IMG/VR virus record: IMGVR_UViG_3300005086_000029
Coordinates: 1-41,736 of that record
Length of the DNA stretch: 41,736 nucleotides
DNA from: a virus
Strand: one strand, 5' to 3'
The notes under the pieces are model-generated. The model saw nothing but the letters and a program-made list of their open reading frames with translations. It was not told where the DNA came from and did not search any database. The translations under genes and the position numbers were made by a program. Shown piece by piece: positions 7,861-36,256 of the stretch. Position 1 is the first letter of the stretch, and the number at the start of each line of letters is the position of its first letter.

Positions 7861-8418
7861 TCACTCTTTAAATTTCCAAATAAAATTATTATAATATTCT
7901 TTTTTGTTATTACAGCACATAGAAATAGGTGATTTATTAAATCCTGTTTTTCTACACGCTTCATTTATAGATTTGAATTCATTAATTAAATTATTATTTT
8001 TATCATATTGTAAAACTGGTTTACAAGTAGATACATTTTGTAATTTTTTATTAATTTTTTCTTGTCTATTATTATAAAGATTATTATATTTTACAGTACA
8101 CCATTGTAAATTGGTATAATGATTATTAATTTTATTTTCATCTTTATGATTTATAACAGGATAATTATTAGGATTTTCTAAAAAAGTCTTTGCTACTAAT
8201 TGATGTATAAAAAAGTGCTTTCTTTCACCTTTATTATTCACTAATTGAGTATAATAATAACCATCTTTATTAATTTGTGGTATTAATACTTTTTCTTTTA
8301 ATAATCTTTTATCTGTACTACTTCTAGCTGAATTTACTTCTTTGGGTAATCTAATTACTTTTCCATATTCTGAAATTTTATATAAATTTTCAAAATCTTT
8401 AATTTCTTTATAAATCAT
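7861..8418 (-). CDS. Intron-encoded HNH homing endonuclease with NUMOD4/NUMOD1 domains
   Basis: About 185 aa. Domains in order: NUMOD4-like (IYKEIKDFENLYKISEYGKV), HNH core (HQLVAKTF, then VINHKDENKINNHYTNLQWC) and C-terminal NUMOD1-like helix-turn-helix (VLQYDKNNNLINEF, SINEACRKTG). It is expected to cut the intronless nrdJ allele and drive intron homing. The frame is open to an ATG at 8496, but the extra 26 residues are unlike the family, so the ATG at 8418 is preferred; it starts the NUMOD4 domain directly and has its own promoter upstream. Confidence 0.88.
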   Translation of the reverse strand: MIYKEIKDFENLYKISEYGKVIRLPKEVNSARSSTDKRLLKEKVLIPQINKDGYYYTQLVNNKGERKHFFIHQLVAKTFLENPNNYPVINHKDENKINNHYTNLQWCTVKYNNLYNNRQEKINKKLQNVSTCKPVLQYDKNNNLINEFKSINEACRKTGFNKSPISMCCNNKKEYYNNFIWKFKE

Positions 8419-8454
8419 ATTTTTACGAGTTTTAGCTGCTGATTGTCTATTATT

Positions 8455-8486
8455 ACAATATACGAAATATAATTGTAATATCCAAA
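8455..8486 (-). promoter_or_regulatory. Bacteroidota-type promoter for the nrdJ intron HNH gene
   Basis: TTTG (start of TTTGGATA) is followed after exactly 20 nt by TATATTGT, close to the Bacteroidota -7 element TAnnTTTG. It lies about 40 nt before the preferred ATG at 8418. The same arrangement and spacing precede the other two homing-nuclease genes. Confidence 0.55.
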
Positions 8487-8588
8487 TATTTTTCAAACTT
8501 TCACACTTATCTTTTCAGATTATGTTGTAGTATATTTGGCTTTAAGAGTTTCCAGCAATTCACAAATTTAAGACGCAGTGGGTTATTT

Positions 8589-31225: not shown

Positions 31226-31888
31226 CTATATCTTAATTTTACGCCATATATATCCATATATAGTTGGTTTATAACCATTACATACTGAATATATATTTTG
31301 CCATTTATAATTAGGATTAGATTTAATAATTTCTTCAACAGAAAACCACTCTTTTATAAAATTGTTGTTTTTGTCAAACTGTTGTATTTTAAATTTATGT
31401 TTTTTTTGAGAAACTTTTTTAGCCATTTCTTTTTTAGCTTTTGGATTATCTTTCCAATAAGTATGAGAATGTTTCATTGTATCATATTCTGGATTAGAAT
31501 ATAATTTAATTTTACTTTCTGACATTCTTTTTTTAGTTTCTTCAGATAAAATACATTTAGTTTCAGAATCTAATCTTAAATTATAACCAAAATCTCTATT
31601 ATTAGATTTTAATTTTAATATCCAATATAACTCTTTTTCTTTTAATATCTTATCATTTTTAGGTAAATCTTCTAAAATAATATATTCAAAATTATTACGA
31701 CCATATTTATGCCATGATCTAATTAAATGAATATTATCATTTTTATCTTTTTTATTTAATTTATTTATATGATACCTTATTCTTTCATATATATTAATTG
31801 ATTTACCTATATAAAGTTTATTATTAACTTTATTTTTTATTGCATAAATTCCACAACGATTTAAATCTCTTTTTCTATTAAGCTTCAT
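31226..31888 (-). CDS. Intron-encoded GIY-YIG homing endonuclease
   Basis: 220 aa. GIY-YIG domain CGIYAIKNKVNNKLYIGKS with the conserved Arg in ERIRYH; linker with NUMOD3-like LSEETKKRMSESK; C-terminal NUMOD1-like IQQFDKNNNFIKEWFSVEE and a final YGYIWRKI strand. Expected to cut intronless polB and spread the intron. Has its own promoter upstream. Confidence 0.92.
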   Translation of the reverse strand: MKLNRKRDLNRCGIYAIKNKVNNKLYIGKSINIYERIRYHINKLNKKDKNDNIHLIRSWHKYGRNNFEYIILEDLPKNDKILKEKELYWILKLKSNNRDFGYNLRLDSETKCILSEETKKRMSESKIKLYSNPEYDTMKHSHTYWKDNPKAKKEMAKKVSQKKHKFKIQQFDKNNNFIKEWFSVEEIIKSNPNYKWQNIYSVCNGYKPTIYGYIWRKIKI

Positions 31889-33528: not shown

Positions 33529-33560
33529 TTATTTGCTGTTAGTAATCTTTTATTTTTTTT

Positions 33561-35799: not shown

Positions 35800-35825
35800 A
35801 AAAAAAGGGGATTTGAAGCTCCCCT
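35800..35825 (-). terminator. Terminator after the tRNA cluster
   Basis: Minus strand AGGGG and CCCCT enclose a 10-nt loop and are followed by six T, then ATAC. The loop includes TTCAAAT, so it resembles a T-arm, but the T-run and the absence of an acceptor strand favour a terminator. Confidence 0.65.
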
Positions 35826-35828
35826 GGG

Positions 35829-35850
35829 CTTACCACTAGGCTACAGCTCT
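35829..35850 (-). tRNA. 5' half of tRNA-Cys (acceptor strand and D-arm)
   Basis: AGAGCTG-TA-GCC-TAGTGGTAA-G matches the start of Cys/Gln-type tRNAs (TAGCC-AGTGGTAAG). AGAGCTG pairs over six bases with CAGCTCC of the 3' half at 36001-36059, which lies upstream in transcription. No anticodon or T-arm follows. With the other half it makes a nearly complete tRNA in permuted order; the D-stem has one mismatch. Confidence 0.4.
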
Positions 35851-36000
35851 AAGCTGTGCGTGTGGATTTAATTTAATAACTTTTACTGTTATTAAGGTAT
35901 TTTAACCCTATTTAATTATAGATTTATACTATTCAAAACCAGTCAGCCCCAAACAACTGACCATGCTCAGTCAAACTTCTTGGTAACATTTAAACTGTAG

Positions 36001-36059
36001 TGGAGCTGGAGAGGATCGAACTCTCGTCATAATATAATATAATTAACCTTGCAGATTAA
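36001..36059 (-). tRNA. 3' half of tRNA-Cys (GCA anticodon arm, T-arm, acceptor strand)
   Basis: Anticodon arm TTAAT-CTGCAAG-GTTAA gives GCA (Cys). T-arm GAGAG-TTCGATC-CTCTC is perfect, followed by CAGCTCC and A73. The link between anticodon and T-arm is 17 nt, longer than normal and AT-only at its start. Upstream is directly the end of tRNA-Pro, so acceptor 5' strand and D-arm are missing here; matching pieces lie 150 nt downstream. Confidence 0.55.
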
Positions 36060-36064
36060 AATAG

Positions 36065-36183
36065 TAGGGGATATTGGACTCGAACCAATGACAACGTGCA
36101 CCCAATGCATATGTATGTATTGCTGTAAGTATACTTATTCAGTATACATATTTACGTGCTCTAGCCAACTGAGCTAATCCCCT
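36065..36183 (-). tRNA. tRNA-Pro (TGG) interrupted in the anticodon stem
   Basis: Acceptor AGGGGAT/ATCCCCT, D-arm GCTC/GAGC, variable TTGTC, T-arm ATTGG-TTCGAGT-CCAAT are all canonical. Removing 45 nt (36109-36153) joins CGT to GC and gives a perfect anticodon arm CGTGC-ATTGGGT-GCACG, anticodon TGG. Without removal the stem cannot form beyond three pairs. Confidence 0.85.
36109..36153 (-). other. 45-nt intron-like insertion in tRNA-Pro
   Basis: Lies between tRNA positions 29 and 30. It has 8-bp terminal inverted repeats (ATATGTAT / ATACATAT) and an internal 7-bp hairpin GTATACT-GAATA-AGTATAC. Far too small for a group I intron. The exact border is ambiguous by one T. Confidence 0.75.
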
Positions 36184-36256
36184 CATATTCAGAATACTTT
36201 TCTTTATTTATCCAAAAAATAAGTTGTTTTATTTTGCTGTAAGTATTCTTTTTATT

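What the first reader, a model, noticed from the sequence alone, without database searches (positions are those of the whole stretch)
36065..36183. tRNA-Pro carries a 45-nt inverted-repeat insertion inside its anticodon stem
All arms of a tRNA-Pro(TGG) are canonical, but the anticodon stem is split after CGT by 45 nt with 8-bp terminal inverted repeats and an inner 7-bp hairpin. Taking out exactly these 45 nt restores CGTGC-ATTGGGT-GCACG. A length of 45 nt rules out known group I introns. Small introns at noncanonical stem positions such as 29/30 are known for archaeal tRNAs cut by a dedicated endonuclease, not for bacterial phages. So either the phage or host has an unknown splicing route, the RNA self-splices, or the gene is dead.
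Basis: partly seen in the sequence, partly recalled or inferred. Interest (0 to 1): 0.85.

Follow-up and report, generated by a model that had tools for sequence, protein, structure and literature searches.

The report
Anticodon-loop RNA scaffold inside phage tRNA
The odd 45-base insert in this phage tRNA gene is one member of an apparently undescribed family of small viral RNAs that carry tRNA anticodon loops on a common scaffold, found here in dozens of phages and perhaps used as decoys against bacterial enzymes that cut tRNAs.

Summary
A tRNA-Pro(UGG) of a crAss-like phage carries a 45-nt insert in its anticodon stem at 28/29 (or 29/30). It is not a lone oddity, decay or a known intron. The conserved part of the insert is a hairpin, stem-UG-loop-stem'-UUACAGCAA, which is a circularly permuted copy of a free-standing ~60-nt scaffold (stem-NNACAGCAA...stem'-UG). 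One free copy lies just upstream of this tRNA. The same scaffold occurs in dozens of phage contigs and several cultured jumbo phages, mostly in tRNA clusters. It carries three kinds of cargo: bare anticodon stem-loops (most often Lys-UUU, then Thr-UGU, Ser-GCU); circularly permuted tRNAs; and, in inverted order, it interrupts otherwise perfect tRNAs. Outer stems covary strongly. Stem, motif and 3' CUG match the features described for Dictyostelium Class I RNA (Rfam RF01414, 27-37 bits, below its 41.5 cut-off), reported from no other organism. I favour tRNA/anticodon mimicry, that is decoys for anticodon-targeting host factors such as PrrC or PARIS AriB (about 0.5), over a tiny spliced intron (about 0.28). 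No expression, cleavage or splicing data exist: the family is well supported, its function inferred.

The parts
36065..36183 (-). tRNA-Pro(UGG), interrupted; all arms perfect; no encoded CCA
   Evidence: Rfam RF00005 44.2 bits; ARAGORN with introns allowed
36155..36183 (-). 5' part of the tRNA, acceptor to position 28 (...GAGC A CG)
36110..36154 (-). 45-nt insert at 28/29 (36109-36153 if 29/30): UAAAUAU-[GUAUAC]-UGAAUAA-[GUAUAC]-UUACAGCAA-UACAUACAUA
   Evidence: hairpin is the MFE fold
36142..36147 (-). strand Y of the scaffold stem (GUAUAC), followed by UG (36141-36140)
   Evidence: covaries with X between window, L020 and other cis-disrupted tRNAs
36120..36134 (-). strand X of the scaffold stem (GUAUAC) plus the conserved motif UUACAGCAA
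36065..36109 (-). 3' part of the tRNA: UGC-AUUGGGU-GCACG, T arm, acceptor
36190..36248 (-). free-standing scaffold RNA GAAUAC-UUACAGCAA ... GUAUUC-UG, 59 nt, 6 nt before the tRNA
   Evidence: (RF01414 30.1 bits); homologue at the same place in L020
36204..36222 (-). candidate anticodon stem-loop in that RNA: UUAUUU-UUUGGAU-AAAUAA (Pro UGG); A/U-only stem and not in its MFE fold, so weaker than in other phages

Best explanation
The insert is a scaffold RNA module, not a random insertion. SHOWN by sequence: phages encode ~50-70-nt RNAs in tRNA clusters built as 6-8-bp stem, NNACAGCAA, variable cargo, stem', UG; the cargo is often a 7-nt anticodon loop on a short stem, sometimes a circularly permuted tRNA. 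In the window the module sits in the anticodon stem of tRNA-Pro(UGG) in permuted order (Y-loop-X), giving the same branched fold as the permuted-tRNA elements with the ends moved to the acceptor. INFERRED: the RNA is not spliced; the scaffold stabilises it and keeps it out of translation while presenting an anticodon arm (with tRNA body when present), so that it acts as decoy, competitor or sacrificial substrate for host factors that recognise anticodon loops, chiefly anticodon nucleases such as PrrC or PARIS AriB.
For: (1) Same module in L020 and in disrupted tRNAs of unrelated phages. (2) One pattern that did not ask for stem pairing gave 62 hits; all 7 in full tRNA context pair 5-6 of 6 (six of them 6/6), 0 of 52 without tRNA context reach 6/6. 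(3) 17 of 34 short elements hold a hairpin with 4 WC bp, 7-nt loop, U33 and R37; 1000 shuffles mean 2.2, max 7. (4) Pattern ACAGCAAN{6,24}CAAACTNNNAATTTG: 117 stretches; 38 of 62 distinct hits examined have 6/6 outer stem + UG against 2.2 in the control; with further loci 53 elements, about 29 distinct stems, anticodons UUU 21, UGU 9, GCU 5, UGA 4, GUU 3; UUU enriched against intact tRNAs of the same loci (21/53 vs 26/641, p 1.7e-13). (5) 38 of 46 lie within 500 nt of a tRNA; 19 loci also hold an intact tRNA of that anticodon; L096 and the L117 phage have intact Pro(UGG) and Asp(GUC) besides the disrupted copies. (6) AriB is reported to cut Lys(UUU), Thr(UGU), Asn(GUU), Thr(CGU), and probably His(GUG) and Pro(UGG) (PMC12409363): several match. 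(7) Some elements cannot be working tRNAs: L026 lacks an acceptor stem; permuted ones cap the acceptor with a short linker and no CCA.
Against: No transcript, binding or protection data. Cis-disrupted tRNAs keep perfect acceptor, D and T arms, three even encode CCA (two in L117, one in L067), and insert ends are conserved (CG^UAAA ... ^G), which a splice substrate would also show. Bare loops differ from real tRNA arms in the stem, and AriB needs contacts outside the anticodon arm. Ser(GCU), Ser(UGA), Tyr and Gly loops are not reported AriB targets. The window's own free-standing loop has an A/U-only stem. The cassette pattern fixed U33 and A37-A38, so the anticodon spectrum is conditional on that.
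Confidence: 0.5

Rival explanations
1. The insert is a tiny (~38-52 nt) tRNA intron removed by an unknown route (scaffold-recognising endonuclease plus host or phage ligase). The permuted tRNAs are permuted intron-exon precursors that mature by the same splicing, then RNase P and RNase Z.
For: Excision restores a 5-bp anticodon stem in 19 of 20 cases, mostly at 28/29 or 29/30, with conserved ends CG^UAAA ... ^G. Acceptor, D and T arms are intact and some encode CCA. Cis and permuted forms occur, as in archaea and algae. RNA ligase (PF09414) is present in 10 of 21 records.
Against: Pairing across the junction is also expected if the RNA stays unspliced as a three-way junction. Bare anticodon loops on the same scaffold are not explained. 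Intact isoacceptors sit in the same phages. Odd loops on otherwise Pro-type tRNAs in L117. No BHB. No RNA ligase or RtcB in near-genome-length contigs G003, G009, G038, G039.
Confidence: 0.28
2. The scaffold RNAs are mimics with another target: they titrate tRNA-modifying enzymes (44 of 53 cassettes end in U36, the t6A37 class) or an RNA-binding protein, or compete at the ribosomal A site.
For: Most cassettes read ANN codons (counted). Dictyostelid Class I RNAs of the same build bind an RRM protein (PMC7919456).
Against: No partner protein was looked for in the phages; the cassette pattern itself fixed A37-A38. Full tRNA bodies as cargo are not needed for a simple titration.
Confidence: 0.13
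3. Selfish or decaying repeat: a MITE-like palindrome landed in the tRNA gene, which is dead.
For: Short, hairpin-forming, repeated; some members degenerate.
Against: Circular permutation is not produced by DNA transposition; stems covary; arms stay intact; the same site is used in unrelated tRNAs and phages; T-stem changes between L096 and L119 keep pairing.
Confidence: 0.07

Closest known systems
Dictyostelid Class I RNA (Rfam RF01414; PMC7919456)
   Same: 6-bp stem joining the ends, sequence-free but covarying; conserved motif next to the 5' stem (CUUACAGCAA in the phage; T3, C6, C9, A10, A11 of the 11-nt motif); variable middle; 3' CUG; about 60 nt
   Different: Phage genomes, tRNA clusters, cargo of anticodon loops or whole tRNAs, no DUSE promoter known; scores 27-37 bits, below the 41.5 cut-off
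Disrupted tRNAs of archaea and red/green algae (cis intron, permuted, split)
   Same: Cis and permuted forms of the same disruption in the anticodon arm
   Different: No BHB motif, own conserved scaffold, phage-borne, also carries bare anticodon loops
Phage tRNAs that counter anticodon nucleases (T5 tRNAs vs PARIS, PMC12409363; phage tRNAs with altered anticodon loops, eLife 85183)
   Same: Phage RNAs with the anticodons attacked by host tRNases, in tRNA clusters
   Different: Those are working tRNAs; these are scaffolded mimics or tRNAs with an interrupted anticodon stem
T4 stable RNAs C and D
   Same: Small non-tRNA RNAs in a phage tRNA cluster
   Different: No scaffold element found in that T4 region (and scan)

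Membership tests
Dictyostelid Class I RNA RF01414 | Rfam gathering score 41.5 bits | tested here: not met
   Best 37.1 bits (L060, E 0.0023 over 68 kb), window 30.1, L020 30.9
Dictyostelid Class I RNA RF01414 | 6-bp end-joining stem kept by covariation | tested here: met
   about 29 distinct stems in 53 elements; 38 of 62 vs 2.2 control
Dictyostelid Class I RNA RF01414 | 11-nt motif after the 5' stem and 3' CUGU end | tested here: met
   ACAGCAA was the search anchor; CUUACAGCAA ... CUG in the window; many elements continue CUGU
Dictyostelid Class I RNA RF01414 | DUSE promoter ~60 nt upstream, expression | not tested
   A eukaryotic promoter is not expected in a phage; no RNA data
Group I intron | Catalytic core, ~200 nt or more | tested here: not met
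   45 nt; no RF00028 match in the window
BHB tRNA intron (archaea/eukaryotes) | 3-nt bulge, 4-bp helix, 3-nt bulge at the splice sites | tested here: not met
   0 of 13 junctions have 4/4 central pairs
BHB tRNA intron (archaea/eukaryotes) | Exact excision in vivo | not testable with these tools
   Needs RNA
Permuted tRNA genes | 3' half upstream of 5' half, all arms restorable | tested here: met
   L033 Glu, L057 Ile, L135 Thr, L136 Ile; relatives only, not the window tRNA itself
Anticodon-nuclease decoy | Carries the loop of the attacked tRNA | tested here: met
   UUU 21, UGU 9, GUU 3 of 53 against AriB targets
Anticodon-nuclease decoy | Binds or is cut by the nuclease and protects tRNAs | not testable with these tools
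   Needs biochemistry

The most novel reading that the evidence does not exclude
Phages of bacteria possess a tRNA-splicing route of their own: a ~45-nt Class I-like scaffold works as a minimal intron in cis (this tRNA-Pro) and as a permuted intron-exon frame around circularly permuted tRNAs, removed at CG^UAAA ... ^G without a BHB motif or a group I core.
Probability: 0.25. Interest if true: 0.95.

Novelty: categorically new. Interest (0 to 1): 0.9.

Why it matters
A widespread, apparently undescribed family of phage RNAs that carry tRNA anticodon loops on a fixed scaffold would be a new layer of the tRNA arms race between phages and bacteria (PrrC, RloC, PARIS, retrons, Cas13a), or, if spliced, a new tRNA intron type in the bacterial world. 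Its match to dictyostelid Class I RNA, an abundant RNA of unknown function believed unique to social amoebae, makes the question of what that architecture does directly testable in phage systems.

Tried and rejected
BHB intron: tested, not met. Group I: no match in the window. The 8-bp terminal repeat as functional unit: not kept in relatives, not in the MFE. Search for the exact tRNA-Pro anticodon arm in IMG/VR gave only unrelated sequence; ARAGORN 'introns' in L009, L019, L027 and L060 do not carry the scaffold and were dismissed. Phi14:2, the best isolate relative, shows no scaffold element in its first 20 kb. T4 RNA C/D region and phiR1-37 50-99 kb: no scaffold elements (scan). Phage RNA ligase as a requirement: not consistent (the PF09511 control rang nowhere, so that search proves nothing). 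Genome collection: only two MAG contigs with the commonest stem, tRNA-rich and probably phage-like. Literature searches found no description of such RNAs in phages (open-licence papers only).

Full report
OBSERVATION. The tRNA-Pro(UGG) at 36183-36065 (-) is real and otherwise perfect; ordinary ARAGORN misses it, ARAGORN with introns finds it. Taking out 45 nt restores CGTGC-ATTGGGT-GCACG, with a one-base ambiguity (28/29 or 29/30). The inner hairpin GTATAC-TGAATAA-GTATAC plus TTACAGCAA is the stable part; the outer 8-bp repeat competes with it and is not conserved.

A SECOND COPY NEXT DOOR. Six bases upstream of the tRNA lies GAATAC-TTACAGCAA...GTATTC-TG (36248-36190). It has the same two strands as the insert, in the opposite order and with a different but again complementary stem: a circular permutation with covariation. 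The window belongs to a 41.7-kb virus record related to Cellulophaga phage phi14:2, Crassvirales. In the closest relative found, L020 (76% identity in the PolB exonuclease part), both the free-standing RNA and an interrupted tRNA are present at the same place, the insert being CTATTC-TGTATAA-GAATAG-ATACAGCAA.

A FAMILY. In crAss-like relatives L026 and L033 the scaffold (call the strands X = stem-NNACAGCAA and Y = stem'-UG) forms tandem arrays joined by AUAA(A/G). Some units enclose circularly permuted tRNAs: X, 3' half, short acceptor linker, 5' half, Y. A scan of IMG/VR for one stem found 19 stretches in diverse, tRNA-rich phages, up to 242 kb. A scan for inserts next to a D arm, which did not require stem pairing, gave 62 hits: all seven in full tRNA context pair 5 or 6 of 6 bases, none of the 52 without tRNA context reaches 6 of 6.

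INTERRUPTED AND PERMUTED tRNAs. Twenty were laid out. In 19 a 5-bp anticodon stem is restored, L020 having 4; most junctions are at 28/29 or 29/30. Where the junction is unique it reads CG^UAAA (one CG^UAAU) at the 5' end and mostly ^G at the 3' end; part of the UAAA signal was built into the scan, but L096b, L093a, L033, L026 and L135 were not selected for it. Anticodons include Pro UGG (window, L096, L067), Lys UUU (L103), Asn GUU (L108, L093), Asp GUC (L096, L117), Thr UGU (L135), Ile (L057, L136), Glu UUC (L033). Phage L117 has four consecutive interrupted tRNAs, two on Pro-type acceptors with non-Pro loops. L129 is a further Asn(GUU) case (sequence, read by hand).

ANTICODON LOOPS AS CARGO. 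Many short units hold a textbook anticodon arm: CAAA-CUUUUAA-UUUG (Lys), CUUAA-CUUGAAA-UUAAG (Ser), ACAAA-CUUGUAA-UUUGU (Thr), CAAA-CUGCUAA-UUUG (Ser). Half of 34 units pass a strict test, against a mean of 2.2 in shuffles. The recurring cassette CAAACU-NNN-AAUUUG was then used as a pattern. 117 stretches of IMG/VR match. Of 62 distinct hits examined, 38 have a perfect outer stem followed by UG, against 2.2 when the upstream 8 nt are shuffled. With further loci there are 53 elements with about 29 distinct stems; the anticodons are UUU 21, UGU 9, GCU 5, UGA 4, GUU 3, GUA 2 and singles; UUU is 21 of 53 against 26 of 641 intact tRNAs in the same loci, p = 1.7e-13. 38 of 46 lie within 500 nt of a tRNA gene. 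In four contigs read end to end or nearly so, elements lie essentially only at the tRNA cluster.

CULTURED PHAGES. Xanthomonas phage XaC1, Cronobacter phage GAP32, Serratia phage BF, Erwinia phage pEa_SNUABM_12, Aeromonas phage Ahp1 and, with a variant motif, Pseudomonas phage Milchi (loop UUUGA-CUUUUAA-UCAAA next to its tRNA-Lys) carry such elements. GAP32 and BF/SNUABM_12 also carry units that look like permuted tRNAs (read by hand).

WHAT IT RESEMBLES. Rfam's Dictyostelium Class I RNA model picks up the phage elements at 27-37 bits in the window, L020 and a set of ten loci; L020 6213 scores 24; the cut-off is 41.5. The published hallmarks (6-bp covarying stem, 11-nt motif with T3, C6, C9, A10, A11, variable middle, CUGU end, ~60 nt, 'no evidence in any other organism'; PMC7919456) are met by the phage RNAs apart from the eukaryotic promoter. 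By the curated threshold it is not a member; whether this is homology or convergence is open.

HOW IT WORKS. Two readings remain. Mimicry: one explanation covers bare loops, permuted tRNAs without a free acceptor, an element without acceptor stem, intact isoacceptors in the same phages, and the match of Lys(UUU), Thr(UGU), Asn(GUU), Thr(CGU) and Pro(UGG) with reported AriB targets; PrrC has been studied with anticodon stem-loop analogues (reference title in PMC2610378). Splicing: explains why the interrupted tRNAs are otherwise perfect, some with CCA, and why insert ends are conserved, but not the bare loops; there is no BHB and no consistent ligase. Pairing across the junction cannot decide, since an unspliced three-way junction has the same pairs. 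I put 0.5 on mimicry and 0.28 on splicing.

LIMITS. No RNA data. Scans used fixed strings, so counts are not frequencies and some features (ACAGCAA, U33, A37-A38, CAAA/UUUG) were imposed by the pattern. The window contig is a fragment. Literature searched is open-licence only.

Noticed in passing
window 35836-36060 (-): Match to permuted tmRNA (RF04321, 47.3 bits, just over the cut-off 47) directly downstream of the tRNA-Pro, acceptor halves GGGGCUG/CAGCUCC; relatives carry ordinary tmRNA (phi14:2, L005, L021, L033) and one permuted (L039).
   Followed up: partly
window 35800-35860 (-): AGAGCTGTAGCCTAGTGGTAAGCC followed by AGGGGAGCTTCAAATCCCCTTTTTTT: looks like a tRNA 5' remnant running into a terminator.
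   Followed up: no
window 33533-33546 (-): ATTACTAACAGCAA stands 3 nt before tRNA-Leu(GAG); a possible X strand without a clear partner nearby.
   Followed up: partly
L068 1117-1580: GOLLD RNA (163 bits) beside a scaffold element and a tRNA-Lys in a 104-kb phage contig.
   Followed up: no
L117 6046-6766: Four consecutive interrupted tRNAs, some with loops that do not fit their acceptor type (UUGAGGA, CAUUAAA on C1-G72 tRNAs).
   Followed up: partly
L060 3236-3335, L096 3389-3528 and 4685-4862: tRNAs that ARAGORN reads with other inserts (26, 68, 94 nt) lacking the scaffold motif; maybe another kind of interruption.
   Followed up: no
window 31226-31888 and 7861-8496 (-): GIY-YIG homing endonuclease next to the PolB exonuclease gene and HNH endonuclease between two ribonucleotide reductase pieces, probably intron- or intein-borne.
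   Followed up: no
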